Source of the DNA: Terriglobia bacterium | GTDB taxonomy: Bacteria > Acidobacteriota > Terriglobia > Terriglobales > Acidobacteriaceae | NCBI GenBank assembly: GCA_020073015.1 | Contig: JAIQFZ010000016.1 | Span: forward strand, 1-49,739 | Direction of reading: 5' to 3' | Length of the DNA stretch: 49,739 nt | In this document: positions 1,729 to 45,474 of the stretch, piece after piece | Layout: every line of letters starts with the position of its first letter | Numbering within the stretch: position 1 is the first letter of the stretch | Notes under the pieces: generated by a model | Seen by the model: the letters and a program-made list of their open reading frames with translations, nothing else | Database searches by the model: none | What the model was told of the DNA's origin: nothing | Made by a program: the position numbers and the translations under genes

Positions 1729-3117
1729 ATGACACAGGAACGGGTACTGATCGTCGAAGACGAGGAAAACGAGCGCACGGGGCTAGCCGAATTAGTTTCC
1801 AGCTGGGGTTACCGCACGGATACGGCCGCCGACGGGGTTGACGCTTTGGAGAAGGTTACGGTGTTTAGCCCGTCGATCGTCATCACCGACATCAAGATGC
1901 CGCGCATGGGCGGGATGGAACTGGTGGAGCGGCTGGCGGATCTTTCTTCGTCGATTGCGGTGGTCATGGTGACTGCACAGAAGACGACCGAGACCGCGTT
2001 TCACGCCGGGCGGCTGGGGGTGCAGGATTACATCGAGAAGCCCATCGATTTCCGGCGTCTGCGCTCGATCCTCACCAACATCGGGGAAATTCTCCACGCG
2101 CGTACGGAAAATGAATCCCTGCGGAAGAGTTTGCGAGACAAGGGGGCACTGGGCCGATTGGTTGGTTCCTCCGCCCCGATGCAGGAAATCTTTCGTCTGA
2201 TTGAGATGGTGGCGCCGAGCACGGCTTCGGTCCTGATTACCGGATCGAGTGGCACGGGCAAGGAACTGGTGGCGCGCACCATTCACGATCTGAGTCCGCG
2301 GAAAAACAAACCCTTCGTGCCGATTAATTGCGCGGCCATTCCCGAGACGCTGATCGAGAGCGAGATTTTCGGCCACGAGAAAGGCGCCTTCACTGGGGCG
2401 CTCGAGCGCCGTACGGGCTGTTTCGAACTCGCCGAAGGTGGAACGCTGCTGCTGGACGAGATCGGCGAGATGCCGGTGGCCACACAGGCCAAGCTGCTGC
2501 GCGTGCTCGAAGATCACAAATTGCGCCGCTTGGGCAGCAAGGTTGAGACCGCAGTCGACGTGCGCGTCCTGGCCGCGACTAACAAGGTTCCGGAGGACGC
2601 GGTTGCCGAGGGGCTGCTCCGCCAGGACCTTTATTACCGCCTGAACGTTTTCAATCTCCATATGCCCGCGCTGCGCGAACACAAGGAGGACATTCGCGAA
2701 CTCGTCAAGCAGTTGCTCGCGGAGATGAATCAAAAACACAACCGCAAGGTGGCGGACGTCAGTGAGGCCGTGCTCAATCTATTTCAGAGTTACTCCTGGC
2801 CAGGCAATGTCCGCGAGCTGCGCAATACGCTGGAGCGCGCCGTCATCGTGTGTGAGGGTGGTTTGATCGAAACCAAGCATCTGCCGCCCGGCTTTGGGCA
2901 GAGTGTGCGCCCGGTCGTGAATGATCCGGACGCCTTGCACCTGGGAGTCGGGACCACCGTCGAAGAAGCTGAGAAACTGCTCATTCTGAAAACTCTGCAG
3001 TCCACACATAACAACAAGACGCGGGCGGCTGAGATTCTGGGCATCAGCCTGAAGACGCTCCACAATAAGTTGAAGGAATACGGCCGACCGCAAGATGCGG
3101 TGCTGGCGGAAGAGTAG
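1729..3117 (+). CDS. sigma-54-dependent NtrC-family response regulator
   Basis: This protein has the three-domain layout of an NtrC activator. Residues 1-120 are a receiver with acidic pocket E10-D11 and phosphoacceptor D54 (VITDIKMPRMGG). Residues ~140-370 are an AAA+ module with Walker A GSSGTGKE, the sigma-54 contact loop GAFTGA and Walker B GTLLLDEIGEMP. The C-terminus is a Fis-type helix-turn-helix (NNKTRAAEILGISLKTLHNKL). All key residues are present, so it should hydrolyse ATP and open sigma-54 promoters. ATG 1729 is preferred over the upstream in-frame TTG at 1720 because the receiver starts directly after it. The kinase follows 95 bp downstream, with an inverted heptamer array between. 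I see no clear -24/-12 element nearby, so its targets are unknown. The 291-bp gap upstream (1438-1728) holds no supported gene. Confidence 0.95.
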   Translation: MTQERVLIVEDEENERTGLAELVSSWGYRTDTAADGVDALEKVTVFSPSIVITDIKMPRMGGMELVERLADLSSSIAVVMVTAQKTTETAFHAGRLGVQDYIEKPIDFRRLRSILTNIGEILHARTENESLRKSLRDKGALGRLVGSSAPMQEIFRLIEMVAPSTASVLITGSSGTGKELVARTIHDLSPRKNKPFVPINCAAIPETLIESEIFGHEKGAFTGALERRTGCFELAEGGTLLLDEIGEMPVATQAKLLRVLEDHKLRRLGSKVETAVDVRVLAATNKVPEDAVAEGLLRQDLYYRLNVFNLHMPALREHKEDIRELVKQLLAEMNQKHNRKVADVSEAVLNLFQSYSWPGNVRELRNTLERAVIVCEGGLIETKHLPPGFGQSVRPVVNDPDALHLGVGTTVEEAEKLLILKTLQSTHNNKTRAAEILGISLKTLHNKLKEYGRPQDAVLAEE

Positions 3118-3206
3118 TTCTCAGTTCCCAGTTCCCAGTTCCCAGTTCTCAGTTAAGAGGGGTTCAGGACCGGTCTGAGAACTGAGAACCGGGAACTGAG
3201 AACTGG
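3116..3206. repeat. inverted heptamer array (AGTTCYC / CTGAGAA)
   Basis: Five consecutive 7-bp units (AGTTCTC or AGTTCCC) run from 3116 to 3150 with a decayed sixth. After a 24-bp spacer, four units of CTGAGAA (one decayed to CCGGGAA) run from 3175 to 3202. The second array is the reverse complement of the first, so the RNA can fold into a long hairpin. The first unit begins inside the TAG stop codon of the response regulator. The second array ends 7-10 bases before the kinase ATG, where a ribosome-binding site would normally be. Confidence 0.9.
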
Positions 3207-3212
3207 TCTTGC

Positions 3213-5072
3213 ATGAGCCGCAAAGCCATCATCGTGTTTGTCATCACCACGCTGTTCACGGCGATGGTGGTGGCTTTTTCATGGGTCTATCTCTCGCAAT
3301 TGCTGCGGCAGCGTCTGCTCTGGGCGGACGAAACCGCCTCCGGACTGACGCGCCAGATGGAATACACGGCATCGAAAGCCGTGCCCGATCTGACCAGCAC
3401 GCGCGTAGATACCGCGAACCCGAAGGCCCTGCGGGCGGCCATCACCGGCTACCTGCAGACCGACACGAATCTGAACGACATGCTGGAGTCGGTGGTTGGG
3501 AATTCGCAGATTATCTACGATGCCGCCATTGTCGATACCAGCGGCGTGGCGATTCTGGATACCAATCCGACGCTGAACGGCAAGCCGGTCCCATGGCGGC
3601 CCGCGTTGAATGTCCTACGAGACGCTGGTTTCCGCCGCCAACTGCGCCTGTTGTACGGCTCGTCCGCCGTGTATGACGTTAGCATCCCGCTGGAACTGGA
3701 CAGGCTGCCGTTCGGCAGCGTGCGAGTCGGCGTCTCAACGGTGTTTCTACGGAATGAACTGGCGACGAAGCTGCAGCAGGCAGCTTTTTTCTCAGTGGTA
3801 GCGATCTTTTGCTCGCTGCTGCTCTCGGCGGTAGTTTCAAACGTGGCGCTCGGACCGTTGAAAGCGATTGCCCGCAACCTGGACAGCGCAAGCGCCGGTG
3901 AAACCGATCTGCTGCCGGCGGAGGAATCGAGTTCGGACGAGGTGGGTCTGGTCTCCTTGAAGATCGCTCATCTGGGCCGGCAGATTCGCGACACCAACCA
4001 GATTTTCTCGGCGCTGAAAGACAACGTCGAGCAGGTGATGGCGAAGCTGCAGGACGGTCTCATGCTCTTCACGCGCGACTCTCGGGTCGTGCTGGTGAGC
4101 GCTTCGGCGGAAAAGTTCCTGGGACGGCCGCGGCGCGAAATCCTCGGACGGAGAGCGGAGGAAATTTTTTCCGACGGATCGGTGCTGGGGGCGGTAGTGC
4201 TGCCGGCGTTCCAGAAGCAGCGTCCGCTGGTGCAATACGACTTCGACGCTGCGGACGGCCGCCGCGTGCAAGTGTCGCTCGATTTTATCCAGGAAAAGGG
4301 AACCCCGATCGGAGCGTTGCTGACCATGCGCGATGCCGAATCGGTGCGCCGCATCGAGGACGAGATCGAAATCTCGAGGCGCTTGTCGGCGGCGGGACGG
4401 CTGACTCGCGGAGTCGCGCACGAGGTCAAGAACCCGATCAACGCGGTCGTGCTGCACTTGCAGTTGCTGCAGAACAAGTTGCAGCAGGATGACCCCGACA
4501 CGCGCCGGCACATGGAGATCATCGGCAACGAAATTCACCGCCTGGATCGCGTGGTGCAGATTCTGGTGGACTTCACCCGCCCGCGCGATCTTCATCTGGA
4601 AGAGATGGACATGCGGACGATCCTGGAAGAAGTTGGGGTGCTGGCCTCGCCGGAAGCGGGGCGGCACGGGATCCGGATGGACCAAGACCTGGCGGACGAG
4701 CGGTTGGTGGTGCGCGTGGACCCGGATCTGATGAAGCAAGCAATCCTGAACCTGGTGTTGAATGGTGTGCAAGCCATGACGCAGGGGGGAACGCTCACTC
4801 TGGCCGCGCGGCGCGACGAGGAGACGATCCTGATTGAAGTGCGCGATCAGGGCAGCGGCATTCCGCCCGAGGTACAGGAGAAAGTTTTTGAGCTGTACTT
4901 TACGACCAAGAAGGAGGGGAGCGGAATCGGGCTCGCGCAGACCTATCAGATCATGCAGTGGCACTATGGGTCGGTGGAATTCGAAACGATCGTCGGCTCG
5001 GGCACTACCTTTCGACTGCGACTGCCCGCGTTGAGCGCAAACCCAGCGACGCAGGCGGAAATAACGGCGTAA
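3213..5072 (+). CDS. membrane-bound sensor histidine kinase (NtrB/ZraS type)
   Basis: It is predicted to phosphorylate the NtrC-type regulator just upstream. An N-terminal membrane helix (residues 5-27) is followed by a ~165-residue extracytoplasmic sensor region. A second helix (FFSVVAIFCSLLLSAVVSNVA, about 191-211), a HAMP linker, and a PAS domain (MAKLQDGLMLFTRDSRVVLV...) come next. The HisKA domain has phospho-accepting H403 (GVAHEVKNPINAV), and the HATPase carries the N-box LNLVLNGVQAM, DQGSGIPPEV and GSGIGLAQTYQIM. The ligand is unknown. The start has no recognisable Shine-Dalgarno: the upstream bases belong to the heptamer array, so translation may depend on coupling or on that hairpin. 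The order regulator-then-kinase is the reverse of the commoner arrangement. Confidence 0.93.
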   Translation: MSRKAIIVFVITTLFTAMVVAFSWVYLSQLLRQRLLWADETASGLTRQMEYTASKAVPDLTSTRVDTANPKALRAAITGYLQTDTNLNDMLESVVGNSQIIYDAAIVDTSGVAILDTNPTLNGKPVPWRPALNVLRDAGFRRQLRLLYGSSAVYDVSIPLELDRLPFGSVRVGVSTVFLRNELATKLQQAAFFSVVAIFCSLLLSAVVSNVALGPLKAIARNLDSASAGETDLLPAEESSSDEVGLVSLKIAHLGRQIRDTNQIFSALKDNVEQVMAKLQDGLMLFTRDSRVVLVSASAEKFLGRPRREILGRRAEEIFSDGSVLGAVVLPAFQKQRPLVQYDFDAADGRRVQVSLDFIQEKGTPIGALLTMRDAESVRRIEDEIEISRRLSAAGRLTRGVAHEVKNPINAVVLHLQLLQNKLQQDDPDTRRHMEIIGNEIHRLDRVVQILVDFTRPRDLHLEEMDMRTILEEVGVLASPEAGRHGIRMDQDLADERLVVRVDPDLMKQAILNLVLNGVQAMTQGGTLTLAARRDEETILIEVRDQGSGIPPEVQEKVFELYFTTKKEGSGIGLAQTYQIMQWHYGSVEFETIVGSGTTFRLRLPALSANPATQAEITA

Positions 5073-5115
5073 CCCGCCGGTTCCTCCATCTACACTGGTT
5101 GCTACGAACCTAAGT

Positions 5116-5703
5116 ATGCCTCTGGCTCTGATCCTCGTGTTGTCGTGGCTGGTGAGCGCTCCGGCCTGGGGAACGGCCTTGTTTCCACAGGATATTCCCG
5201 CCCCTGGTTCCACTCAGTCCCCGGGCTCTTCTCCCACGGATCCCCCGCAGACTGCACCCACCAAAAGCGAGCCGCCTGCCACGGAGAAGGAAGCATCCGA
5301 GAGTGCAGCGAAGAAGAAGGCGGAAGGCGCACCTGCGAGCAAGGCCGCGAAGCGGCGTCGGGTGCGCAAAAAAGTCCCGAAGCCACCGCCTGCCGGGGAG
5401 CCCCGCAAGATCGTGGTACGCGAGGGGGGAGCGATCGAGCCTCCAGCACAGATTGTGCCTGGCATAGCTCCGCAGGAAGCCAGCCAAGAGCGCCAGCAAG
5501 CCGTGGAACTACTCAGTGCGACGGAGGAGGACCTTCGGCGGCTCGCGGAGCGCACCCTGGATTCCCGGCAACAGGAGACAGTGGCGCAGATTCACAATTA
5601 TATGGATGGTGCGCGTTCCGCCTTGAAGGATGGCGATACCCAGCGGGCGCACACGCTGGCGCTCAAGGCGCACTTACTGGCGGACGATCTGGTCAAGCAC
5701 TGA
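5116..5703 (+). CDS. secreted Pro/Lys-rich protein with helical C-terminal domain, unknown function
   Basis: I do not recognise a named family. The protein has a probable signal peptide (MPLALILVLSWLVSAPAWG), a low-complexity Pro/Ser/Thr/Lys linker (residues ~25-100, including a basic patch KRRRVRKKVPKPPP), and a C-terminal helical segment (~120-195: RQQAVELLSATEEDLRRLAERTLDSR ends in LALKAHLLADDLVKH) that looks like a TPR-like helical pair. A basic, extended linker suggests it could span to the cell wall or bind an acidic surface polymer; this is inference. It lies 43 bp after the kinase on the same strand and may be co-transcribed. A GGTTC...GAACC inverted repeat occupies the gap. The start lacks a strong ribosome-binding site. 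Confidence 0.7.
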   Translation: MPLALILVLSWLVSAPAWGTALFPQDIPAPGSTQSPGSSPTDPPQTAPTKSEPPATEKEASESAAKKKAEGAPASKAAKRRRVRKKVPKPPPAGEPRKIVVREGGAIEPPAQIVPGIAPQEASQERQQAVELLSATEEDLRRLAERTLDSRQQETVAQIHNYMDGARSALKDGDTQRAHTLALKAHLLADDLVKH

Positions 5704-5727
5704 CGACCTGGCCTTCAATTTCAAGAA

Positions 5728-6864
5728 TTACTTCGCCCTTGGGCGAGCGGTATTTACCTTGTTCAGCAAGTCGCGCGAGGGACCTTGCAATGGGCCGGGG
5801 ATCTTTACGGCTTCTTCCAGAATGGCCTTAGCCTCCGCAATCTTGTTGGTTTTTCCGTAAGCCCATCCCAGGCGGTAGAGTGCGGTCGCATACGCTACGT
5901 CGTCTTGACCCTTGAGCAGCGCGGCTGCCGATTGTAACTCTGGAATCGCCGCCACCGTTTTGTCCTGCTTCGCATACGCATAGCCCAGGGTAGAATGGGC
6001 AACTCCTCCCGAAAGGCGGCGCGATTTGTCGGCGTCGGGCGCGTCCGCCTTGGCCAATTCGATCACCTTCTGCGAATAGGTAACGGCCTTGGCCAGGCTC
6101 TCGGGGCGGGTGCTCTCGACGTAGGCGTTGGCGAGCAGCAGCAAGGTCGGCATGCTGTTGGGATTGGCGGCCAGAGCCTTCTCCCCATACGAGAACAAGC
6201 GGGCGGAGTCGTTCAACTGTCCGAGCGTGAACATGGCGTATTGCGTGACCGGTTCGTCAAAGCGGGAAACGGGAAACGCAGGGGTAAAGCGCTCGATGTA
6301 AGTCATGCGCATCTTGTCGTCTTTTTCGTCGATGATGGCGTTGAAGGCGGCCGTTTCCAGAAACTCGTAGGAACTTTTATTGCTCTCCTTGGCTTCGGCC
6401 AGGCGGGAAGCGTACTCGGCGTCCGCTACGCCTTCGGGCTTGGGCCGGTGCAGTGCAGTGTTGTAGGCCTTGCCGCCGCGGGTCGCATAGTCGAGGATCT
6501 TGGCGTTATTCTTCATCTGTTCGGCGACATTCGTCTGTGAAACCAGCACGTCGAGATCGTCGGGCCTGGCGGTGAGGGCCTTGTCGCCGTAGTTGAGCGC
6601 CTTCTCCAGGTCGCCCGAGGTTTGGTAGTACTGCGCGATCTGCCAGTCGCCGTACGCCACGGCCATGGGATTCGACGAGAAATTGCGCACAAAGTCCTCG
6701 TACAGGGCGAGTTTCTTCTGAGCGTCCGCTTCATTCGAGATCGCCTGCAGCGCCTTATCTTCGGGCGTCCCCGCTGGAATGGTGATTTTTTCGAGTTGGG
6801 CGAACGCGGGCGCGGTCAGCAACCAGGCGGACAAAAGCATGCGAGCAACAACGGCGGGGCTCAT
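5728..6864 (-). CDS. secreted tetratricopeptide-repeat protein
   Basis: The start at 6864 is favoured by a GAGG motif 6 bases upstream and by a signal peptide that follows at once (MSPAVVARMLLSAWLLTAPAFAQ). The 355-residue mature protein is all-helical with TPR-like pairs, for example YGDWQIAQYYQTSGDLEKALNYGDK cut across two helices, LFSYGEKALAANPNSMPTLL, and ATALYRLGWAYGKTNKIAEA. Such periplasmic TPR proteins are scaffolds; no enzyme motif is visible. It converges with the Pro/Lys-rich gene (24 bp between stops). An inverted heptamer array lies between it and glgC, which is on the same strand upstream, so it may be transcribed with glgC or alone. Confidence 0.85.
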   Translation of the reverse strand: MSPAVVARMLLSAWLLTAPAFAQLEKITIPAGTPEDKALQAISNEADAQKKLALYEDFVRNFSSNPMAVAYGDWQIAQYYQTSGDLEKALNYGDKALTARPDDLDVLVSQTNVAEQMKNNAKILDYATRGGKAYNTALHRPKPEGVADAEYASRLAEAKESNKSSYEFLETAAFNAIIDEKDDKMRMTYIERFTPAFPVSRFDEPVTQYAMFTLGQLNDSARLFSYGEKALAANPNSMPTLLLLANAYVESTRPESLAKAVTYSQKVIELAKADAPDADKSRRLSGGVAHSTLGYAYAKQDKTVAAIPELQSAAALLKGQDDVAYATALYRLGWAYGKTNKIAEAKAILEEAVKIPGPLQGPSRDLLNKVNTARPRAK

Positions 6865-6952
6865 GGGCAACCTCGGTCTGAAACGGAAAGCATTTTCAGC
6901 GCGAATCGTATCGCTGAAGCCAGTGTGACGCAAGCCCGCGTTCCTAAGAGAA

Positions 6953-7024
6953 AGGTCTTAGGTCTCAGGTGACAGAAAAATCCTATCGGGGATCGAGACT
7001 CTTCTGAGACCTGAGACCTGTGAG
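6953..7024. repeat. inverted heptamer array (AGGTCTC / CTGAGAC)
   Basis: AGGTCTT, AGGTCTC and AGGTGAC follow each other at exact 7-bp steps from 6953. CTGAGAC occurs twice from 7004, then CTGTGAG. The two arrays are reverse complements separated by about 30 bp, giving a potential hairpin downstream of glgC, whose stop codon is at 7035-7037. It is the same layout as the arrays at 3116 and 10554 but with a different heptamer. Confidence 0.85.
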
Positions 7025-7034
7025 AGCTGATCTC

Positions 7035-8436: not shown

Positions 8437-8469
8437 ATGCTGTCCAGAAATCTGCTCTTCCCAGGCGCG

Positions 8470-10551: not shown

Positions 10552-10553
10552 TG

Positions 10554-10624
10554 AGTACCCAGTACTCAGAACAGGCGGCCGTCATCCTGCGCTCTCTCGA
10601 CTTCAACTGGGTACTGGGTACTGG
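10554..10624. repeat. inverted heptamer array (AGTACYC / CTGGGTA)
   Basis: AGTACCC and AGTACTC follow directly from 10554, with a decayed third unit. CTGGGTA occurs twice from 10607, then a partial CTGG. The second array is the reverse complement of the first, about 35 bp apart. The array starts 3 bases after the stop of the YdcF-like gene and ends about 50 bases before the CDGSH gene. Confidence 0.88.
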
Positions 10625-12216: not shown

Positions 12217-12314
12217 GTCAACACAAAGATCTCCCGAATGAGTTCTTGAGTTTGTAGAACCCACTCATCGCAAAGCACGTGATGAGTGGGGCGCCCCACC
12301 AGAGCACAACCCGT

Positions 12315-12341
12315 AAAGCCAGAGCCCAGAGCCGAAAGCCT
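12315..12341. repeat. heptamer array (AGAGCCC type)
   Basis: Four units, AAAGCC(6), AGAGCCC, AGAGCCG and AAAGCCT, follow at 7-bp steps except the first. Related units occur at 16719 and 34224. The array lies in the 160-bp gap between the PilZ and FAD-oxidoreductase genes. Confidence 0.7.
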
Positions 12342-12376
12342 ATCCAGAGTGATACACTCCCTCGCCGGAGGCCTTT

Positions 12377-14516: not shown

Positions 14517-15059
14517 ATGCCTGCGCGTTCTGCCAAGCGTCCTGTTGCAGGCACATCTGCTAACTCCCAATCCGCACCCCAGGCTGACCGGCCGTTTGCT
14601 CCGGGCTACGGCATTGTGGGCCCAGAAGACGGGAAGGGGTTGCTGCCATGGTCGTGGGTTGCCAAGCGGATGAGTCCCTGCCGGACGTTCTGGGTGGCCA
14701 CGATCCACGCTAGTCAAGCGCGTCCGCATGTCATGCCGGTGTGGGGCGTGTGGCTTGACGACGCGTTCTTTTTCTCAACCGGACGCAAGTCTCGCAAAGG
14801 GCAGAACCTCGCGGTGAATCCGGCGTGCACGGTGGTGAACGACGACGGGGAAGAGGCGGTGATTGTCGAAGGCTCGGCCGAGGAACTCAAAGACGCAACT
14901 GCTCTGGAGCGAGTGGCTGCGGCTTATCTGAAGAAATACAAGATGGATCCGCGCAGCATGGGCGAGCCAATTTTCAGGGTGCGTCCGAAGACGGTGTTTG
15001 GGCTGATTGAGAAAAGCTTTCCGAAGTCGGCGACGCGGTGGAAGCTGGAGAATTTGTAA
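14517..15059 (+). CDS. pyridoxamine 5'-phosphate oxidase-like flavin/F420-fold protein
   Basis: The split-barrel fold of the PNPOx superfamily is suggested by CRTFWVATIHASQARPHVMPVWGVWLDD, FFFSTGRKSRKGQNLAVNPACTVV and EEAVIVEGSAEELKD. These match the first strands, the phosphate-contacting S/T-G-R-x-S/R-K turn, and the family's central strand. Such proteins bind FMN, F420 or haem and reduce small molecules; the cofactor cannot be assigned here. The C-terminus (RVRPKTVFGLIEKSFPKSATRWKLENL) is also family-like. AGGAGG lies 8 bases before the ATG. An unstructured 25-residue N-terminus precedes the fold. The last codons and stop are part of an AATTTGY-like repeat. Confidence 0.85.
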   Translation: MPARSAKRPVAGTSANSQSAPQADRPFAPGYGIVGPEDGKGLLPWSWVAKRMSPCRTFWVATIHASQARPHVMPVWGVWLDDAFFFSTGRKSRKGQNLAVNPACTVVNDDGEEAVIVEGSAEELKDATALERVAAAYLKKYKMDPRSMGEPIFRVRPKTVFGLIEKSFPKSATRWKLENL

Positions 15060-15116
15060 TTTCGCAATTTGCAAAGCAACTCAGCGACCGAGTCAAATCA
15101 CCAATCACCAATCACA
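15051..15116. repeat. two short 7-bp-period arrays (AATTTGY and AATCACC)
   Basis: AATTTGT and AATTTCG step by 7 bp from 15051, then another AATTTGC after an 8-bp step; this covers the C-terminal codons and stop of the PNPOx-like gene. AATCACC occurs twice plus AATCACA from 15096 to 15116, covering the TGA stop of the BrkB gene on the other strand. Unlike the arrays at 3116, 6953 and 10554, the two parts are not reverse complements of each other. Confidence 0.7.
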
Positions 15117-15981
15117 GATTCCGCAGTATTCTCCGCGCCGACAGATGTGCCCCCGTCAGCAGCAGCATTCCCGAGAGAAAAGCCCAGAACATCAAGCTCA
15201 CTGAGATCGCGAAGGGGCCGTAGACTTCTCCGAAGTTGAGCCAGGGGAGAGCGAAGATGTAGGCGTATTTCAGCACTTCCGAGAGCAGGCCCATCAGAAT
15301 GGCGGTGGGCAGAACGCCTCGGGCGGGAACTTTTCCGTTCGGCAGCAACCAGTAGACCAAAAAGAAAACGGCAATGCTGGCCAGAATCGCGAATACCTTC
15401 ATGGTCACGAAGCCCACCAACTGCACGTACCAGGCGCCGTAACCGTGGAGAGCGCTTTTCACCACGGCGACGTTGCCCGCGGTCAGGGCGACGGATAGCA
15501 GGGCGAGTGATCCGCAGGCAAAGGCAAGGCCGAGCGCGATCAGTTGATTGCCGAGGTACGAGCGATTGTTGCGGAATCCCCAGACGCGGTTGAGCGCGAC
15601 CTCAAGGGGAAGGAAGATTCCCGTCGAAGTAATCAGCAGCATGACCAGTGAGAAGATCTGGGCGCGATGATGCGCGCTGACGAGCGCGTTCAGATTGCGG
15701 ATGACGAATTCCTGTCCGGTGGGCAGGTAGTCGCGCAGCAGGCTCTCCACGACGCTGTACATGATCTGCGAATGAAACACTCGCCGGATGAGCGTCAGCA
15801 GCAACAGCAGGAAGGGGAAAAAAGAGAGGATGGCGTTGGCTGCGACCGAGAAGGCAAAGGTGTGGACTTCGGTTCGGAGCATATAGCGCGCCGTTGAACG
15901 CAGCAGCCCCTCTAGGTGCGCCCGGCGAAACTCGCTGGCCCCGTGCTGTTCAGAAATTTCAACTGGAGTGATCGATGACAC
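15112..15981 (-). CDS. YihY/BrkB-family inner-membrane protein
   Basis: This polytopic membrane protein has about six helices and the YihY/BrkB pattern: TFAFSVAANAILSFFPFLLLLL near the N-terminus, LNRVWGFRNNRSYLGNQL in the middle, VFFLVYWLLPNGKVPARGVLPTAI, and the final FALPWLNFGEVYGPFAISVSLMFW segment. Family members were once named ribonuclease BN by mistake; the true role (transport or envelope maintenance) is unresolved. The start is GTG at 15981, with only a weak GAGAAAAG upstream. It converges with the PNPOx-like gene, 52 bp apart, and its stop codon lies inside a heptamer array. Confidence 0.9.
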   Translation of the reverse strand: MSSITPVEISEQHGASEFRRAHLEGLLRSTARYMLRTEVHTFAFSVAANAILSFFPFLLLLLTLIRRVFHSQIMYSVVESLLRDYLPTGQEFVIRNLNALVSAHHRAQIFSLVMLLITSTGIFLPLEVALNRVWGFRNNRSYLGNQLIALGLAFACGSLALLSVALTAGNVAVVKSALHGYGAWYVQLVGFVTMKVFAILASIAVFFLVYWLLPNGKVPARGVLPTAILMGLLSEVLKYAYIFALPWLNFGEVYGPFAISVSLMFWAFLSGMLLLTGAHLSARRILRNL

Positions 15982-16676: not shown

Positions 16677-16732
16677 GCTACGAGCTTCGAGCTGCGAGCG
16701 AGCAGGGCACAGATTCAAAGCCAAGAGCCAGA
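16677..16732. repeat. heptamer arrays (GCTNCGA and AGCCARG)
   Basis: GCTACGA, GCTTCGA and GCTGCGA step by exactly 7 bp from 16677, with a decayed fourth. After 14 bp, AGCCAAG and AGCCAGA follow from 16719. The array ends 9 bp before the end of the glycosylase gene. Confidence 0.75.
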
Positions 16733-30694: not shown

Positions 30695-30720
30695 GGGTGA
30701 AGAATACTAGTAGGGAGCGC

Positions 30721-30741
30721 TGGTCGCTAGTCGCTAAGCGG
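30721..30741. repeat. short heptamer array (TGGTCGC / TAGTCGC)
   Basis: TGGTCGC, TAGTCGC and TAAGCGG step by 7 bp. The TAG stop of the disrupted small membrane gene (minus strand, 30729-30727) lies in it. Confidence 0.5.
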
Positions 30742-34223: not shown

Positions 34224-34258
34224 AAGAGCCATGAGCCCAAAGCCCAACTGCCAACTGC
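34224..34258. repeat. heptamer array (AAGAGCC to CAACTGC)
   Basis: Five units step by 7 bp from 34224: AAGAGCC, ATGAGCC, CAAAGCC, then CAACTGC twice. The unit drifts along the array. It is related to the arrays at 12315 and 16719. Confidence 0.75.
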
Positions 34259-34302
34259 CGCTTCCCCGCCGCCTCCCTCTGGTCTAAACTGTCCCTGAGT
34301 TC

Positions 34303-39073: not shown

Positions 39074-39092
39074 AGACGGCTTGCTCCGTCTC
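39073..39092. repeat. hairpin repeat at the DRE-TIM stop codon
   Basis: GAGACGG, loop CTTGCT, CCGTCTC: a 7-bp stem beginning on the G of the TAG stop. It lies between two convergent genes and may serve as a terminator for either, though no T-run follows. Confidence 0.75.
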
Positions 39093-39095
39093 GCC

Positions 39096-40295
39096 CTACT
39101 CCGGCTCGCGTGCCAGTTCCGGACTCGGCAGCCCCTCGCCCTCCAGTTCCTTCTGCCGAGCCGCGCGCTGCTGATTGAGCATTTTCGTTGCGGCCGCTAA
39201 CTCCTGCCGCCCTTCCTTTTCACGCCCCATCCGCATCAGCACTTGCCCGCGCAAATACCGCGCGCTGGCGTTGCCCGAATCCAACCGGATGATCTGATCC
39301 AACTCCGCCAGTGCTGCGGCATAGTGCCGGCGATGTTCTTCGATCTTCGCCAGCCCCATGTGCGCGCTGACCAACTGCGCGTTTAACTTCAAAGCCTGCC
39401 GGTAGTTCTTTGCCGCCTCTTCCTCATTCCCAAGTGTCGCCTCTACAGCACCGAGCTGCTCGTAGGCGAACGTGACGTCCGGCTCGATCGCAATGTCTTT
39501 CTGAAACTCGCCGCGCGCCTGTTCAAACTGTTGCTTGTGCATATACGCCAATCCCAGGTTGAAGTGCACAAACGGCAGTTTCGGATCGGCCTTGGCCGCC
39601 ACTTCCAGTTCGCGCACCGCATCGTCGTACTCTTCGCGATTCAAGTGCGCCTTACCCATCAGCAGATGAAACTCCGGCGAGTTCTCCCCGATCTCCACCA
39701 GTCGCCCGAGCGCTTTCTCCTCGAGCGCAGAATTCTTCGACTTGTAAGCCGCAATCCCAAGCACATACAGATAATTCAGCTGATCCGACGCCTGCCCCCA
39801 CAGGGGTGCGAGCGTCGCGATCGCATCCGTCCATCGATCGTTGAAAAAGTAGCAGAGCCCAAGCAAGTGTTGCGCCTGGTAGGAATCCGGGACGTCTCGG
39901 ACCACCGACTCAAATGGCTTGATAGCCGAGCGAAAGTCGTTCTGCCGGAAATAAACCAGCCCGATATTCAACCGGATTCCCGGAATGTTCGGCGCCAGCT
40001 TTTCCGCCCTCTGCAGCATTGCCAAAGCCTGCGGCCACTGTTTGCGTCGCATATGAATCACGCCCAGATTCGCGTACGCTCCCGCCACCCCGGGATCGAC
40101 CGCCAGCACCTGCCGGAAATCATGCTCCGCTATGTCGAGCTTGCCCGCTTGCAGGGCGGCTTCTCCTGCCGCGAAAATCTTCTGCGGATTCACCGCTACG
40201 CGTGTTTGCCCTTGGCCTTGCGCGCCCGCGCACAGGGGCAAAAACAGTAGGATTAAAACGGTTAATCCCGCGCTCGTGCTTGACAGTCGATTCAC
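39096..40295 (-). CDS. secreted TPR protein
   Basis: From GTG 40295 the protein has a signal peptide (AGLTVLILLFLPLCAGAQ) and about ten tetratricopeptide repeats covering almost its whole length. Examples are AAGEAALQAGKLDIAEHDFRQVLAVDP, AYANLGVIHMRRKQWPQALAMLQRAE, VHFNLGLAYMHKQQFEQARGEFQ and ARYLRGQVLMRMGREKEGRQEL, each with the W/L-G-Y/A-F-A-P pattern. A short acidic C-terminal tail follows. It is a scaffold in the periplasm; the partners are unknown. It is divergent from the LacI-type regulator with only 45 bp between starts, so the two may share control. A longer upstream frame is only antisense of the regulator. Confidence 0.85.
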   Translation of the reverse strand: MNRLSSTSAGLTVLILLFLPLCAGAQGQGQTRVAVNPQKIFAAGEAALQAGKLDIAEHDFRQVLAVDPGVAGAYANLGVIHMRRKQWPQALAMLQRAEKLAPNIPGIRLNIGLVYFRQNDFRSAIKPFESVVRDVPDSYQAQHLLGLCYFFNDRWTDAIATLAPLWGQASDQLNYLYVLGIAAYKSKNSALEEKALGRLVEIGENSPEFHLLMGKAHLNREEYDDAVRELEVAAKADPKLPFVHFNLGLAYMHKQQFEQARGEFQKDIAIEPDVTFAYEQLGAVEATLGNEEEAAKNYRQALKLNAQLVSAHMGLAKIEEHRRHYAAALAELDQIIRLDSGNASARYLRGQVLMRMGREKEGRQELAAATKMLNQQRAARQKELEGEGLPSPELAREPE

Positions 40296-40340
40296 TGTGC
40301 TGTAGTGTCCGCCAGCAAGAGGCAGAAATTCAAGGAGTCC

Positions 40341-41483
40341 ATGGCGCCGCCTGATTCGAAATCTACCAAAGCCACCCCGTCCGCGTCGAAATCTCGTCGT
40401 GAGCCCGAGTCTTCCCGCAGAACCCAGCCGCCGACCGCCGTCACCATTCGCGACGTTGCCAAGCGCAGCGGATTCTCTTCCGCCACCGTCTCCATCGTTC
40501 TGAACAACGCTCCCCTGTCGCGCTATATCCCCGACACGACCAAGGCCCGCATCCAGCGCGCGGCCTCCCATCTGGGATACCGGCCCAACCTGTTTGCCCG
40601 CTCGCTCCGCAGTCGCCGCAGCCACACCATCGGTGTCATGGTTTTCGACATGACCGATCCCTACTGCACGCTCGTCCTCCGCGGAATCGAGAATACTCTC
40701 TACCAGTCCTCGTTCCTGCCCATCCTCACCGACGTACACAACGAGCGCAGCCGTTTCGAGCGTTACCTCGAAATGCTCCTCGATCGCCGCATCGAAGGTC
40801 TGGTCGTTCTCGCCAACTGGTTGTTCGTGGACATTAACGTCCTCGCCGACCTGGAAAAAAACAACATTCCAACGGCCACCGTGGGACGGCAGCTTAAAAG
40901 TGACAACATCAGTTCCGTGATCGTCGACAACACCAGTGGAGCCCACGCCGCCCTCGAACACCTGTACTCGCTCGGCCATCGCAAGATCGCGTTCATCCGC
41001 GGCCCGCACCAGTTGTCCGATACCGAACCCCGCTGGCGGGGTGTGCGAACGCTGGCCCGCGAATACAACCTCGAACTCGATCCCCGGCTGGTCGTCGACC
41101 TACCAGAATCGGGAGATCCGTTTTCAAGTTTTGAACAAGGATACAAATTAACGGAGGAATTGCTGCAACGGAGCCGTCCCTTCACCGCCCTGATGGCTTT
41201 CGATGACATGACCGCCTTCGGCGCCATCCGCGCGCTCGGCAAAGCCGGCATTCACGTTCCCGAACACTGCTCGGTGGTGGGCTTCGACGACGTTTCACCC
41301 GCCGCCATCTATTCTCCCGCCCTGACCACCGTTCGACAGCCCATGGAAGTCATGGGAGCGACCGTCGCCAACATCGTGGTCGAGGCCATCAACGGCCGGC
41401 TCGAAAAGAAATCCGTGCGCCCTATTCACCGCAAACTTGCCCCGGAACTGATCGTACGCGAATCCACCCGCAGCGTCATCTAG
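40341..41483 (+). CDS. LacI-family transcriptional regulator
   Basis: A polar ~30-residue N-terminal extension precedes the LacI helix-turn-helix and hinge: VTIRDVAKRSGFSSATVSIVLNNAP, then ARIQRAASHLGYRPNLFARSLRS. The rest is a periplasmic-binding-protein-like effector domain (HTIGVMVFDMTDPYCTLVL, RIEGLVVL, HAALEHLYSLGHRKIAFIRGP, ALMAFDDMTAFGAIRALGKAG, VVGFDDVSPAAIYSPALTTVRQP). AAGGAG lies just before ATG 40341. It would bind a sugar-like ligand and control transport genes; the TonB-dependent receptor 160 bp downstream, with a LacI-like palindrome in its promoter region, is the obvious target. A TTGACA at 40280-40285 may be its own -35. Confidence 0.95.
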   Translation: MAPPDSKSTKATPSASKSRREPESSRRTQPPTAVTIRDVAKRSGFSSATVSIVLNNAPLSRYIPDTTKARIQRAASHLGYRPNLFARSLRSRRSHTIGVMVFDMTDPYCTLVLRGIENTLYQSSFLPILTDVHNERSRFERYLEMLLDRRIEGLVVLANWLFVDINVLADLEKNNIPTATVGRQLKSDNISSVIVDNTSGAHAALEHLYSLGHRKIAFIRGPHQLSDTEPRWRGVRTLAREYNLELDPRLVVDLPESGDPFSSFEQGYKLTEELLQRSRPFTALMAFDDMTAFGAIRALGKAGIHVPEHCSVVGFDDVSPAAIYSPALTTVRQPMEVMGATVANIVVEAINGRLEKKSVRPIHRKLAPELIVRESTRSVI

Positions 41484-41542
41484 CCAGGCGGGCAGAAAAA
41501 CCATCCAATTGTTCTTGACAGCCAAGAGCGACTGAAGCACCA

Positions 41543-41556
41543 TTGACACGTTTTAA
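41543..41556 (+). promoter_or_regulatory. LacI-type operator candidate before the TonB-dependent receptor
   Basis: TTGACACGTTTTAA is an imperfect palindrome centred on CG (half-sites agree at 5 of 7 bases), the form usual for LacI-family sites. The TTGACA in it also looks like a -35 hexamer, so binding could block RNA polymerase. It lies 88 bp before the receptor ATG. A second TTGACA is at 41515. Confidence 0.45.
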
Positions 41557-41643
41557 TAAAGGCATTTGTCTGGTTCGACGAAGGTCCGCCGTTCTGGACG
41601 TCTGGCTGTGGTGCTTCTAGAAAAGGCGAAAGGGAGTCAGATT

Positions 41644-44600
41644 ATGAGAATCCGTCTGCTATGCGGAATCGCGATGTGCGTCGCCATCGCCGCCGTCAGT
41701 CTTCAGGCACAGGACACCGGCGTAATCACGGGCACGGTCCGCGATAATTCCGGCGCAGTGATTCAGGGAGCTGACGTCAAAATCACTGGCACCGCTGGCG
41801 GAAACGCAAGAACAACCACCACGAACTCCGACGGCGAATACCTCGCCGCCGGCTTGCCGGGCGGAACTTACAATCTCACCATTTCGTCCAAAGGTTTCAA
41901 GACGTACAAGGCCGACGGCATTGTTCTGCGCATCGGGCAAAAAGCTCGCGTCGATGCCACGCTCGCCGTCGGAAATGTTCAAACTGAAGTCGTCGTCCAA
42001 GGCAGCGAACTCAATCAGGTCGAGACTCAGTCCTCCGAACTCGCCGGCACTGTGACCGGGAAGCAGATAACGCAGCTCCAATTGAACGGTCGTAACTACA
42101 CGCAATTGCTCGCTCTGACTCCCGGTGCAACTAATCAGTCAGGACAGGACGAACCGGGCACAGGTTTGGCAACGGTGGCGTACAGCGTGAATGGTGGCCG
42201 CACGGAATATAACAACTGGGAGATCGATGGTGGCAACAACATGGATGACGGCAGCAACCTCACGTTATTCACCTACCCCAGTCTGGAGGCGATCGCTGAA
42301 GTCCGCGTGCTGAGCTCGAACTACGGCGCGCAGTATGGCAGAAACAGCTCCGGCACGGTCGAGGTTGAGACCAAGTCCGGTACCGCAAAATTCCATGGCG
42401 TTGCGTACGAATTTGTTCGCAACGACGTTTTCAATGCTCGCAATTATTTCTCGCCCGATGTCCCGGCTTACAAGAAAAATGATTTTGGCTATACCATCGG
42501 CGGTCCGGTGACGATTCCTGGTCTCTACAACCAGGATCGAACCAAGACCTTCTTTTTCTTCTCTCAGGAATGGCGGCGCGATAGAGTGCCGGGCCAGGTG
42601 TTCAACGTCGCCGTCCCGTCTTGCGCGGAGCGCGGCTTAGGCGCCGATTGCACACAGTCACAAGGCAGCTTTGGGGATTTCAGCGAACTTTGTCCCGGCG
42701 CCGACTGCCCGATCAATCCAGCGACAGGCTCGAATTTCCCCAATAACCAAGTCCCAATCGATCTTGATAGTAGTCATGGCGTAGTGCCGCTCTTGGCCAT
42801 GTTCCCGCTTCCAACTGGCCAGGATCCAGACACCGGGGTGTCGGTTTACAACGCCGCATTCCCAAGCCCGACCAATTGGCGGCAGGAACTGTTCCGCATT
42901 GATCACAACATTAACTCCAAGTTGCACGCTTCGGTGCGCTACATCCATGACTCCTGGAACTCCGTGAGTCCGGTTCCTCTCTGGACCAATGCCGGCAGCT
43001 ATCCCACGATTCAGAACGCCTATGGACAGCCGGGAACCAGCCTGGTCGCGCATCTCACCGCGACGATTACTCCTACCCTGTTGAACGAGTTCGTTGCCAG
43101 TTACTCCGCCAACCACATTACATTTCAAAATCTCGGGGCGTGGAAGCGGCCCGACGGATATAACCTCGGCATCTTCCAGAATGGCTTCGGTGGGGGAAAG
43201 TTGCCGGGATTTTCCCTGGCCGGAGGCGGCGTGTTCGACGGGCTCGGGGAAGACGCCGGTTACGTGCCCAATGGACCGGTGAATTCCAACCCGAGCTACA
43301 CGTACCGCGACAACGTCTCCAAAATTATCGGCAAGCACAATCTGCAATTCGGCGCCTATTTCGTAGCCTCCCAGAAGAACGAGCTTCCACAATTCGATCC
43401 TTCCGTCCCTGGCTTTGCCAGCTTCGATGTCGGCCTGGCCGGTTCTACGGGCAACCCGTTTGCGGATATGCTGTCCGGAAACATCTCCACCTTTCAACAG
43501 GCCAGTGGCCAGCCCAAGTACTACTTGCGTTACAAAATCTTTGAGCCTTACTTCCAGGACGATTGGCGCATCACCTCGCGCCTGACCCTCAATTTGGGCT
43601 TGCGAATCAGCTTGTTTGGCACCATCTACGACAACAAGCATCAAGCCTATAATTTCGATCCGACGAAATACCTGAATGATAACGGGCAAACCGTGATCAA
43701 TCCCGACGGCACCGTCGGCGGAACCATAGGCCTCTTCAACGGAATGGTGCAATGTGGAGCCGGCGGAGTCCCAACCGGCTGCGCCAAAGGGCATTTATTT
43801 AATCCCGCTCCGCGGATCGGTTTCGCCTACGACCCATGGGGCGATGGCAAGACAGCCATCCGGGGCGGCTATGGCGTCTTCTTCGAGCACACCAATGGCA
43901 ATGAGGCGGTCGCGACCGCGCTCGAAGGCTCACCGCCGCTGGTTCAGAATCCAGTCCAGGGTCCAATCGCGACGACGTTCAATCCCGACGGCACTATCGA
44001 GACCTCCGGCTATTCGCTGGTGGGCGCCAACATTGGTGCGCAACTCCCGCAGAGTGTGGTCTCGATCCCCCAAAAGCAGATTTGGCCCTACGTGCAGCAA
44101 TGGCACTTCGACATCGAGCACCAACTGCCCGCGCACATCGTGGGCATTGCTTCCTATGTCGGGAGCAAGGGCACTCATTTGGGCAGGCGGAGGGATCTCA
44201 ATCAGCTCACGCCAGTACCTTTGAGCGAGAATCCGTACAAACCAGGCGAAGCCATCGGCCCTGACGATTGCGACACAGGAATGACACCGAGCGGCGTCGT
44301 CATCCCTGGTTACACTCCTGGTGGCGATCCAACCCTTCAAACCCCTGGTACGCCCGGCGTGAACATGTTCATTGCCTGCGGAAATACCATCGCGCCTTTC
44401 CGGCCATTTCTTGGGTACTCGGATATCCGGCGCCAGGAAAATGCTGCTTCGTCCATTTATCACGCGCTCCAGCTCTCCGCAAGAAAAACAGTCGGCGCCG
44501 CCCAGATCAGCGCCTCCTATACCTACGGCCACTCCATCGACGACGCATCGTCCGGCGGAGACGGCTCGTTTGTCAACTCGTACGATTTTCATAGCAATCG

Positions 44601-45312
44601 GGCCAGTTCCAATTTCGACCAGCGACAGGTCTTCACCCTGAGCTACATCTATGATCTGCCGTTTTTCAAAGGTCACGGCCTGACTAACACGCTTCTTGGA
44701 GGATGGCAATGGTCTGGCATTACCACGATTCAGACCGGAGCGCCTTTTAGCGTCACGAATGGCGGCGCAGCGTGTACTAGTGTGCCAGATTGTCCGGCAC
44801 TCTTCAGCTCTCCCTCCGACAACGCGGGGGTTGGTAACGGAGTCGGGACTGGTTCGCGCCCGGACCTTGTCGGTAACCCGAATTCCTCAATCGCCAACAC
44901 GGGTAATGCCGCTCCCAACAGTGCGGGCCCGCTGCTGGTCAATCCCACGGCCTTCGCTGCGCCCCAGGGACTGACCTTCGGCAATTCACCGCGGAACGTT
45001 GCCAGGAACCCTCGTCAGACCAACTTCGATATGTCGCTCTTCAAGCGTTTCGCGATTCGCGAAAGTGTGGCGTTTGAATTCCGCGCGGAAGCGTTCAACA
45101 TTTTCAACCATACCGAGTGGGGTTACATTGCCGGTGATGCAGGTTCGGCCGGCGGAAATGGCTCGTACACCGGAGGGAGCAACTCGGTGGGTTGCTACGG
45201 GGCGGATCTGAACGCAGGTGACCCAAATGCCTGCTTGACGGATAACTTCCTGCGTCCGGGAGCCGCCCACAACCCGCGTATCCTGCAACTCGGCTTGAAG
45301 TTCATCTTCTAG
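41644..45312 (+). CDS. TonB-dependent outer-membrane receptor with carboxypeptidase-regulatory-like domain
   Basis: This large outer-membrane transporter is of the Oar-like/SusC-like kind expanded in Acidobacteriota. The order is: signal peptide (residues 1-24, ending SLQAQ); a carboxypeptidase-regulatory beta-sandwich (~27-105: GVITGTVRDNSGAVIQGADV, AGLPGGTYNLTISSKGFKTY); a plug (~115-270, with QLQLNGRNYTQLLALTPGAT and SSNYGAQYGRNSSGTVEVET); and a barrel to the C-terminal F (LQLGLKFIF), as the BAM complex requires. No clear TonB box is seen. AGGGAG lies 8 bases before the ATG. It probably imports an oligosaccharide or other large nutrient under control of the adjacent LacI regulator. A strong terminator follows. 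Confidence 0.95.
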   Translation: MRIRLLCGIAMCVAIAAVSLQAQDTGVITGTVRDNSGAVIQGADVKITGTAGGNARTTTTNSDGEYLAAGLPGGTYNLTISSKGFKTYKADGIVLRIGQKARVDATLAVGNVQTEVVVQGSELNQVETQSSELAGTVTGKQITQLQLNGRNYTQLLALTPGATNQSGQDEPGTGLATVAYSVNGGRTEYNNWEIDGGNNMDDGSNLTLFTYPSLEAIAEVRVLSSNYGAQYGRNSSGTVEVETKSGTAKFHGVAYEFVRNDVFNARNYFSPDVPAYKKNDFGYTIGGPVTIPGLYNQDRTKTFFFFSQEWRRDRVPGQVFNVAVPSCAERGLGADCTQSQGSFGDFSELCPGADCPINPATGSNFPNNQVPIDLDSSHGVVPLLAMFPLPTGQDPDTGVSVYNAAFPSPTNWRQELFRIDHNINSKLHASVRYIHDSWNSVSPVPLWTNAGSYPTIQNAYGQPGTSLVAHLTATITPTLLNEFVASYSANHITFQNLGAWKRPDGYNLGIFQNGFGGGKLPGFSLAGGGVFDGLGEDAGYVPNGPVNSNPSYTYRDNVSKIIGKHNLQFGAYFVASQKNELPQFDPSVPGFASFDVGLAGSTGNPFADMLSGNISTFQQASGQPKYYLRYKIFEPYFQDDWRITSRLTLNLGLRISLFGTIYDNKHQAYNFDPTKYLNDNGQTVINPDGTVGGTIGLFNGMVQCGAGGVPTGCAKGHLFNPAPRIGFAYDPWGDGKTAIRGGYGVFFEHTNGNEAVATALEGSPPLVQNPVQGPIATTFNPDGTIETSGYSLVGANIGAQLPQSVVSIPQKQIWPYVQQWHFDIEHQLPAHIVGIASYVGSKGTHLGRRRDLNQLTPVPLSENPYKPGEAIGPDDCDTGMTPSGVVIPGYTPGGDPTLQTPGTPGVNMFIACGNTIAPFRPFLGYSDIRRQENAASSIYHALQLSARKTVGAAQISASYTYGHSIDDASSGGDGSFVNSYDFHSNRASSNFDQRQVFTLSYIYDLPFFKGHGLTNTLLGGWQWSGITTIQTGAPFSVTNGGAACTSVPDCPALFSSPSDNAGVGNGVGTGSRPDLVGNPNSSIANTGNAAPNSAGPLLVNPTAFAAPQGLTFGNSPRNVARNPRQTNFDMSLFKRFAIRESVAFEFRAEAFNIFNHTEWGYIAGDAGSAGGNGSYTGGSNSVGCYGADLNAGDPNACLTDNFLRPGAAHNPRILQLGLKFIF

Positions 45313-45329
45313 CGGAACTGACTCCGACA

Positions 45330-45365
45330 AGAAATCCTGGCTCCGCGAGCCAGGATTTCTTCTTT
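45330..45365 (+). terminator. intrinsic terminator of the receptor gene
   Basis: A perfect 13-bp stem AGAAATCCTGGCT / AGCCAGGATTTCT with loop CCGCG, followed by TCTTT, 17 bp after the stop. Confidence 0.9.
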
Positions 45366-45380
45366 GCATCAAGATGGAGA

Positions 45381-45400
45381 GACGGGCGCCCCCGCCCGTC
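45381..45400. repeat. GC-rich tetraloop hairpin repeat
   Basis: GACGGGCG, loop CCCC, CGCCCGTC: a perfect 8-bp stem. It is the same design as 34162-34181, with one compensated base-pair change and a different loop base. Confidence 0.8.
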
Positions 45401-45441
45401 CCAGTAATGGCAGTCAATAGGCGGGCCTGCTGACGACCAAC

Positions 45442-45474
45442 CACTGAACTACTGACTACTGACTACTGACTCTG
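45442..45474. repeat. heptamer array (CTACTGA) overlapping a gene end
   Basis: CTACTGA occurs three times from 45449 to 45469, flanked by the decayed units CACTGAA and CTCTG. On the minus strand the units read TCAGTAG and supply the last seven codons (ESVVSSQ) and the stop of the trans-sulfuration gene. Confidence 0.88.

What the first reader, a model, noticed from the sequence alone, without database searches (positions are those of the whole stretch)
3116..45474. A family of locus-specific 7-bp-period intergenic arrays
At least nine gaps hold 2-5 tandem units with an exact 7-bp step: 3116 (AGTTCYC), 6953 (AGGTCTC), 10554 (AGTACYC), 12315 (AGAGCCC), 15051/15096, 16677, 30721, 34224 and 45449 (CTACTGA). 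Each locus has its own heptamer, but those at 3116, 6953, 10554 and 45449 are variants of TCAG plus three bases. The constant period with changing sequence suggests one generating mechanism rather than chance. Short tandem heptamers (STRR) are known from cyanobacteria; I know of no described counterpart in Acidobacteriota. This is my best candidate for an undescribed system.
Basis: partly seen in the sequence, partly recalled or inferred. Interest (0 to 1): 0.8.

Follow-up and report, generated by a model that had tools for sequence, protein, structure and literature searches.

The report
Ever-changing seven-base repeats between genes
Gaps between genes in many Acidobacteriota carry short repeats with an exact seven-base step, often as two mirror-image halves of a hairpin, and the repeated word changes from gap to gap and from species to species, which points to an ongoing process that keeps rewriting these gaps.

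Summary
Window gaps hold 7 exact period-7 runs (>=8 matches) against 0.16 expected (maximum 2 in 200 shuffles); besides the harmonic 14 (2 runs) no period from 4 to 15 exceeds 1. In 380 kb of the genome it is 28 against 0.8. The signal recurs in 23 of 24 genus genomes and in other families.

Three window loci (3116, 6953, 10554) are paired inverted arms, 5'-(YAGNNNY)n-loop-(RNNNCTR)n-3'. In 171 such stems TCAG lies in the 5' arm 194 times, in the 3' arm once.

At the same gap, relatives carry different heptamers, yet the arms still match. 32 of 80 orthologous gaps are no more alike than shuffled sequence at 91-94% gene identity. G.U and A.C mismatches are equal, 147:144: no sign of selected RNA pairing. 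Y1 transposases, SbcD and Ku do not explain presence.

Best reading: a DNA-level process (7-nt duplication plus fold-back copying) keeps rewriting these gaps; its enzyme is unknown. Print knows close relatives: Xanthomonas GGGAATC pairs, Beggiatoa TAACTGA arrays, the Nostoc trnL P6b hairpin. New variant of a known kind.

The parts
3116..3154 (+). 5' arm, AGTTCYC x 5.6, begins in the stop codon of the response-regulator gene 1729-3117
   Evidence: pairs with 3175-3206 (z -5.75)
3175..3206 (+). 3' arm, GRGAACT units, ends 6 nt before the histidine-kinase start codon at 3213
6953..6969 (+). arm AGGTCTT/AGGTCTC
   Evidence: z -3.53
7004..7019 (+). partner arm, CTGAGAC units
10554..10569 (+). arm AGTACCC/AGTACTC
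   Evidence: z -2.70
10607..10622 (+). partner arm, ACTGGGT units
12317..12340 (+). single degenerate AGCC array, no partner arm seen
   Evidence: run of 8
15051..15074 (+). degenerate AATTTGC array with an indel, weak
15096..15115 (+). single array AATCACC x 2.9
   Evidence: run of 13
16677..16699 (+). degenerate array GCTNCGA, weak
30718..30736 (+). CGCTAGT x 2.7, weak
   Evidence: run of 7
34224..34260 (+). degenerate AGCC array running into CCAACTG x 2.3
   Evidence: runs of 7 and 9
45443..45471 (+). CTACTGA x 4 with one indel, overlapping the 3' end of predicted minus-strand gene 45449-46669

Best explanation
These are heptad hairpin elements and their halves: tracts between genes with a 7-bp step, often as two inverted arms (median 25 nt) around a loop (median 24 nt, range 3-160), that are continually rewritten at the DNA level. 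Most likely steps: (1) short duplications or deletions in 7-nt steps (polymerase slippage or template misalignment) extend and homogenise an arm; (2) fold-back or template-switch synthesis copies one arm into its mirror image; (3) whole arrays are lost or replaced by another unit, or by a REP-like hairpin, between sister species; (4) gaps between co-directional genes tolerate this. Shown here: period, paired arms, fixed arm polarity in the window's genus and its near relatives, turnover, strand-symmetric mismatches. Inferred: slippage, fold-back copying, tolerance rather than function.
For: Period 7 with harmonics 14 and 21. Indel lengths between orthologous array gaps have a local peak at 7 (56, against 20 at 6 and 20 at 8). 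Arms repeat variable triplets in mirror order: 62 of 85 stems score above the mean of unit-permuted versions (modest effect), with striking single cases such as L130, 36 nt per arm. Mismatches within 171 stems are strand-symmetric, G.U 147 and A.C 144 (a 3:1 excess would be excluded). Turnover is saltatory: of 80 orthologous gap pairs at 91-94% CDS identity 32 align below 60%, inside the shuffled range, while 16 exceed 80% (six genome pairs, some sharing a genome). One same-genus genome, G318, has 0 pattern matches and no operon gap with a run >=8 (0 of 24), with a weak period-7 signal left (match fraction 0.301 against 0.248-0.261 at distances 5, 6, 8 and 9), as expected of arrays no longer renewed. 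Loop and arm medians.
Against: Plain slippage does not predict the polarity (TCAG 5' arm 194, 3' arm 1), the dominance of YAGNNNY units, or a sister genome without arrays. A strand asymmetry exists that neutral rewriting does not predict: exact runs of CTR type on the sense strand outnumber YAG type 124 to 58. The 7-nt indel peak is partly built in, since alignments of periodic DNA favour multiples of 7, and the 1,402 gap pairs are not independent. The mirror-order effect is small: on average 54% of permutations tie or beat the real score. The faded signal of G318 is not unique: L137 and L138, from other genera with almost no arrays, show 0.299 and 0.296, so it may not be decay. No strain-level pair was available to watch a change happen.
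Confidence: 0.5

Rival explanations
1. Mobile hairpin elements (MITE- or REP-like) moved in trans by a transposase, with heptad arms as a by-product of their replication.
For: The same heptamers recur at unrelated gaps and in distant families. Two gaps in one genome share a unit more often than expected, 0.142 against 0.095, 0 of 300 permutations. Saltatory replacement. Strong Y1 transposases (E<=1e-17) are in 26 of 40 array-rich and 3 of 40 array-poor genomes, and within the genus the 8 genomes that have them hold more pattern matches than the other 16 (p=0.013); neither is corrected for phylogeny or genome size. A few stems share an apex of the AAAAC...GTTTT kind (7 of 171).
Against: Array-rich G116, G156, G190 and G290 have no Y1 match; they are called array-rich by pattern counts alone, and G156 and G290 are 85% and 65% complete. 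Of 14 strong Y1 genes inspected, 10 have 400-nt flanks with no period-7 run >=8 except one GCCGGCT run (L176), and for the other four the whole 3.3-kb locus has none. In the 60 of 171 stems printed I saw no common ends by eye; target-site duplications were not tested systematically. G103's single array gave no clean empty site.
Confidence: 0.2
2. Selected RNA elements: arms act in mRNA between cistrons, or the CTGA-type arm before the start codon acts on translation initiation, as proposed for TAACTGA in Beggiatoaceae.
For: Array gaps are mainly co-directional (28 of 33, against 370 of 532 gaps overall; p=0.05). Operon gaps keep hairpins despite unit change. Exact CTR-type runs outnumber YAG-type 124:58 on the sense strand, in the same direction in four subsets, CTR near the start codon and YAG near the stop codon also where no stem remains. 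Array gaps carry stops in all three frames in the last 60 nt before the start codon in 43% of 162 against 21% in shuffles; 418 gaps without arrays 15% against 15.5%.
Against: No excess of G.U over A.C in the sense strand (147:144); 12 tRNAs gave 12:0 (small, and the program's bracket marking may favour pairs). The period-7 match fraction is not higher on the start-codon side (0.40 against 0.44 in the operon set). Units are replaced wholesale between sister species. One sister genome (G318) and most sampled members of genus g4 have few or no matches.
Confidence: 0.2
3. Chance or ordinary low-complexity DNA.
For: Individual weak loci (15051, 16677, 30721) are within what chance allows.
Against: Period-7 specific excess; (YAGNNNY)3YAG matches 4,975 times in 24 genus genomes, its 8-bp version 5 times.
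Confidence: 0.01

Closest known systems
Nostoc/Calothrix trnL group I intron P6b stem-loop (Class I TDNGATT, Class II NNTGAGT)
   Same: Degenerate 7-nt repeats on both arms of a hairpin, different copy numbers of the repeat, whole-region replacement of one heptad class by another in related strains (PMC4476775, passages and section 18; PMC3488679, passages).
   Different: One locus inside an intron and two unit classes; here many gaps, many classes, no intron (0 Rfam matches at gathering threshold in the window).
Xanthomonas GGGAATC / (GGGANTN)n heptamer repeats
   Same: Intergenic heptamer arrays, many as convergent inverted pairs (70 cases in Xcc, 75 in Xac), mostly between co-directional genes and nearer the upstream gene; most lie between the same genes in both species but with extensive length and sequence variation (PMC4692102, section 10 and passages).
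   Different: One unit family with G-runs (quadruplex); here the common units have no G-run and differ by locus.
TAACTGA direct repeats of Beggiatoaceae, Cyanobacteria, Bacteroidetes
   Same: Intergenic 7-bp arrays; TAACTGA read on the other strand is CAGTTAT, which fits YAGNNNY; mostly just upstream of start codons in Beggiatoa; 7-nt indels between two Cyanothece strains; Microcystis has 'a range of repeating heptamers' (PMC4679880, abstract, sections 8 and 11, passages).
   Different: In the Beggiatoa genome one fixed heptamer, related heptamers rare as arrays, a single inverted case; here 119 heptamers and many inverted pairs. The Microcystis range was not analysed in that paper.
Cyanobacterial STRR heptamers
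   Same: Short tandem 7-bp repeats (name recalled; PMC4692102 cites three tandem heptanucleotides in Calothrix; no STRR paper read).
   Different: A few fixed units; no paired-arm architecture that I know of (recalled).
REP/REPIN elements with RAYT transposases
   Same: Intergenic hairpins at many loci; REP-like elements occupy neighbouring gaps of the same operon here (criteria recalled).
   Different: REPs have a conserved sequence and a cognate transposase; heptad arms vary by locus and no heptads flank the Y1 genes inspected.

Membership tests
TAACTGA direct repeats | One fixed heptamer, related heptamers rare | tested here: not met
   119 distinct canonical heptamers in 334 arrays
[quoted passage not shown]
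   CTR-type runs favour the start-codon side and outnumber YAG-type 124:58, but 98 of 188 array gaps are hairpins with both arms
Xanthomonas GGGAATC repeats | G-run heptamer able to form quadruplexes | tested here: not met
   Commonest units CAGTTCT, CAGGTCT, CAGCTCT have no run of three G
Xanthomonas GGGAATC repeats | Convergent inverted pairs | tested here: met
   171 heptad stems in co-directional gaps, TCAG 5' arm 194 / 3' arm 1
Nostoc trnL P6b heptad hairpin | Degenerate heptads pairing across a stem | tested here: met
Nostoc trnL P6b heptad hairpin | Lies in a group I intron | tested here: not met
   No Rfam match at gathering threshold in the window
Cyanobacterial STRR | Tandem 7-bp units at many intergenic loci | tested here: met
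Cyanobacterial STRR | The published STRR unit sequences | not tested
   No STRR paper was read
REP/REPIN | Conserved palindrome sequence shared between loci | tested here: not met
   Unit differs by locus and by species
REP/REPIN | RAYT (Y1) transposase gene flanked by the element | tested here: not met
   No heptad array beside the 14 strong Y1 genes inspected, apart from one GCCGGCT run at L176; 4 of 40 array-rich genomes have no Y1 match

The most novel reading that the evidence does not exclude
A dedicated but unidentified activity writes heptads: it extends the YAG-type strand from its 3' end in 7-nt steps at breaks or stalled forks (telomere-like), on both sides or on one side followed by fold-back, leaving 5'-(YAGNNNY)n-loop-(RNNNCTR)n-3'. 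This would give the near-absolute polarity in this genus, locus-specific units, genome 'dialects', wholesale replacement, and a sister genome (G318) without fresh arrays after loss of the activity. (Probability lowered from 0.13 to 0.11 on checking, because the residual signal of G318 is matched by two genomes that hardly have arrays.)
Probability: 0.11. Interest if true: 0.88.

Novelty: new variant of a known kind. Interest (0 to 1): 0.62.

Why it matters
An excess of heptamers in bacterial genomes was reported in 2007 and ascribed, as a hypothesis, to polymerase slippage (as told in passages of PMC4692102 and PMC4679880). This phylum offers many loci per genome, many units, fixed arm polarity within a genus, fast replacement at known gaps of the ribosomal-protein operon, and a sister genome without fresh arrays. 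That makes the old question of why seven bases, and what makes them, directly testable. It also warns that a hairpin between genes in these genomes is not by itself evidence of a conserved RNA function.

Tried and rejected
Y1/RAYT transposase as generator: associated (26 of 40 array-rich against 3 of 40 array-poor genomes with a strong match) but without a match in four array-rich genomes, and no heptads beside the genes (in one search the gene frame of L141-L144 was taken wrongly, so one search checked their whole loci). Absence of SbcD as a permissive condition: over-cut-off SbcD in 6 of 40 array-rich and 3 of 40 array-poor genomes, no pattern. Ku end-joining: 20 of 40 against 21 of 40, no pattern; G318 has Ku. 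Against that labelling: stretches of four of the array-rich genomes (G241, G139, G030, G116) gave no period-7 run >=9 between genes, nor did five more stretches of G241 and three of G139, so their matches may be clustered or coding. Empty-site test: G103's lone array (about 12 copies) against six relatives gave unalignable gaps, so no insertion boundary or target duplication could be read. G249's array was searched in its genus, but most matches covered only one flanking stretch and I did not analyse those loci further. A universal YAG polarity across the phylum was rejected: in G063 and G029 some 5' arms are CTGA-type; over 38 stems from other genera 18 are YAG-rich, 6 CTR-rich, 14 tied. RNA-pairing selection was tested by G.U against A.C and found no support. 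Rfam found nothing in the window. Dropped before counts: gaps with N; gaps outside the stated length limits; loci L067-L070 (not Acidobacteriota) from the totals; L132 and L137-L139 (other genera) from the 351 gaps.
Full report
Observation. The window is one whole contig (C142) of a 5.5-Mb, 245-contig genome. Close relatives of its histidine kinase come from MAGs labelled Acidobacteriaceae, Terriglobia, Terriglobales or Acidobacteriales. The named arrays are there. In 40 window gaps (8,192 nt) exact period-7 runs of >=8 matches number 7 against 0.16 in dinucleotide shuffles (maximum 2 of 200); no other period from 4 to 15 exceeds 1 except the harmonic 14 with 2. In 380 kb of the genome: 28 against 0.8, periods 14 and 21 follow, other periods 0-6, and coding DNA shows little (15 against 8.3). 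Besides the window, five of those seven contigs were chosen for carrying an AGTTCYC array, so density there is inflated.

Anatomy. At 3116, 6953 and 10554 the array has a reverse-complement partner in the same gap; single-strand DNA folding gives z = -5.75, -3.53 and -2.70. The other places folded are single arrays, or (12255-12345) contain a separate hairpin without heptads; 16677 was not folded. In this genome's ribosomal-protein operon (C183), by eye, many gaps hold either a heptad tract, some paired, or a different, sequence-conserved hairpin of the form GTAGAGACGCGGC...GCCGCGTCTCTAC. Exact runs >=8 are in only 3 of its 22 gaps, but the match fraction at distance 7 is 0.377, so most tracts there are degenerate.

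Relatives, same gaps. Upstream of the histidine kinase (window 3118-3212), 32 of 39 fetched loci (L032-L063) were read. Many carry paired heptad arms with another unit: TCAGCCA in L040, AGGTCTT in L034 and L036, AGTACCC in L039, AGGTNNC in L063. Some have the other hairpin (L033, L038), and the more distant L051-L059 have none. For 20 relatives plus G000 the ribosomal-protein operon was taken, partial in some. Over 17 genomes of the window's genus, 351 gaps of >=30 nt gave period-7 runs in 99, period 14 in 126, period 21 in 90; periods 8, 16 and 24 in 17-18; all others in 0-6. The match fraction at distance 7 is 0.379 against about 0.25 at most other distances. Stems scoring >=24 occur in 44% of 323 gaps and in none of their single-base shuffles.

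Sequence rules. From 298 kb of intergenic DNA (G000, G084, 54 loci) 334 arrays gave 119 canonical heptamers of about 1,170; the commonest, CAGTTCT (66), CAGGTCT (17) and CAGCTCT (14), are one step apart; 75 occur once. In 171 heptad stems of co-directional gaps TCAG is in the 5' arm 194 times and the 3' arm once, CTGA 0 and 191. The two counts are one fact, since the arms are complementary. Outside the genus the rule is looser: 43 TYAG against 14 CTRA in 5' arms over 38 stems, with some of the opposite type in G063 and G029.

Spread. (YAGNNNY)3YAG matches 4,975 times in 24 genus genomes (23 of 24 positive), its period-8 version 5 times; the reversed-pattern controls gave 1,061 and 146, which I take to include heptads and octads of other kinds. 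Matches overlap within one array and were not split into coding and intergenic, so these are not array counts. Phylum-wide 173 of 297 genomes have at least one match, many of them only one to five, as chance could give; by my hand count about 85 have 20 or more, up to 2,643 in G051. The reversed control is also high in many of these. The stricter CAGTTCYCAGTTCYCAG is in 17 of 297, its reversed control in 4. Stretches from 18 genomes outside the genus, partly chosen for matches, give 116 period-7 runs of >=9 against 0-16 at non-harmonic periods; 4 of the 18 (G241, G139, G030, G116) gave none, and more stretches of G241 and G139 gave none. Dominant units differ: TAGACGT in G083 and, after AAATTCC, in G288; CAGTCCT in G063; CAGGGTT and CAGTAGT in G051.

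Dynamics. Six genome pairs at 91-94% CDS identity, some sharing a genome, gave 80 comparable gaps: 32 align below 60%, the range of shuffled sequence (5-95%: 36-62%), 16 exceed 80%, and 32 lie between. Many gaps are thus either conserved or replaced. Indels in alignable array gaps have a local peak at 7 nt (56; 20 at 6; 20 at 8), though periodic alignments favour this. Gaps of the same genome share a unit more than label-permuted ones (0.142 against 0.095, 0 of 300), and orthologous gaps share more still (0.264). G318 has no match and no operon gap with a run >=8; its residual match fraction at distance 7 is 0.301, but L137 and L138 from other genera, nearly without arrays, show 0.299 and 0.296, so decay is only one reading.

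DNA or RNA? If mRNA pairing were selected, G.U should exceed A.C on the sense strand. Observed: 147 and 144 in 171 heptad stems, 56 and 45 in 76 other stems, under a scoring that treats both alike. Twelve tRNAs gave 12 G.U and 0 A.C, a small control possibly helped by the program's notation. There is however a sense-strand asymmetry: exact CTR-type runs 124, YAG-type 58, same direction in all four subsets, with CTR near the start codon and YAG near the stop codon even where no stem remains. The period-7 match fraction itself is not higher on the start-codon side, so the 3' arm is more uniform rather than more periodic. I cannot explain this by neutral rewriting; it recalls the placement of TAACTGA before start codons in Beggiatoaceae.

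Candidate machinery. Y1 transposases, SbcD and Ku were profiled over 40 array-rich and 40 array-poor genomes; none is present in all of the first and absent from the second, though strong Y1 genes are associated (26 against 3). Fourteen strong Y1 genes were inspected: no heptad array beside them apart from one GCCGGCT run, while 6 of the 10 with resolved genes have a stem scoring >=24 in a 400-nt flank.

Known things. After the tests I compared with print: Nostoc trnL P6b, Xanthomonas GGGAATC, Beggiatoa TAACTGA, with a range of heptamers in Microcystis. Each shares several features; none of the passages that I read describes many units with paired arms and unit switching at many gaps. Searches for Acidobacteriota with heptamer repeats listed no description; the Solibacter genome paper mentions numerous short repeats without naming them in the section read. 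The library is open-access only, so this is weak evidence of absence.

Verdict. A real, widespread and fast-changing feature, wrongly drawn as simple direct arrays. Best read as DNA-level rewriting with fold-back, with an unproven possibility of a dedicated writer. New variant of a known kind.

Noticed in passing
C183 of this genome (L019), operon gaps 2941-3033, 4587-4660, 15648-15804: A second, sequence-conserved hairpin family GTAGAGACGCGGCTTGCCGCGTCTC...CTAC, two palindromes head to head with GTAG at the ends, REPIN-like by recalled criteria; in relatives it stands at gaps where others have heptad hairpins.
   Followed up: partly
L129 rpoA-rplQ gap; L121 and L128 rpsM-rpsK gaps; G051, G029: A minor class of arrays with an 8-bp step (CATTGAGT, TTTCAAGG, GATCGGGT), some as inverted arms.
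   Followed up: partly
G318 (L131 operon stretch): Same-genus genome, 95% complete, with no heptad pattern match and no exact array in 24 operon gaps: a possible natural loss that could identify the machinery.
   Followed up: partly
co-directional gaps: CTR-type runs before start codons go with stop codons in all three frames (43% of 162 array gaps against 21% in shuffles), as a stop in a 7-nt unit visits every frame.
   Followed up: partly
L142, L143, L144 (G297, G304, G000): Y1 transposase loci with their own palindrome GCCCAGCGCTTCAGCGCTGGG on both sides; the G000 copy has an in-frame TGA.
   Followed up: no
G083, G288 (L150-L152, L157): Another heptad family AAATTCC/TTTGGAA in large inverted pairs.
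   Followed up: no
window 12260-12290: A 12-bp hairpin (one G.T) just upstream of the 12317 array.
   Followed up: no
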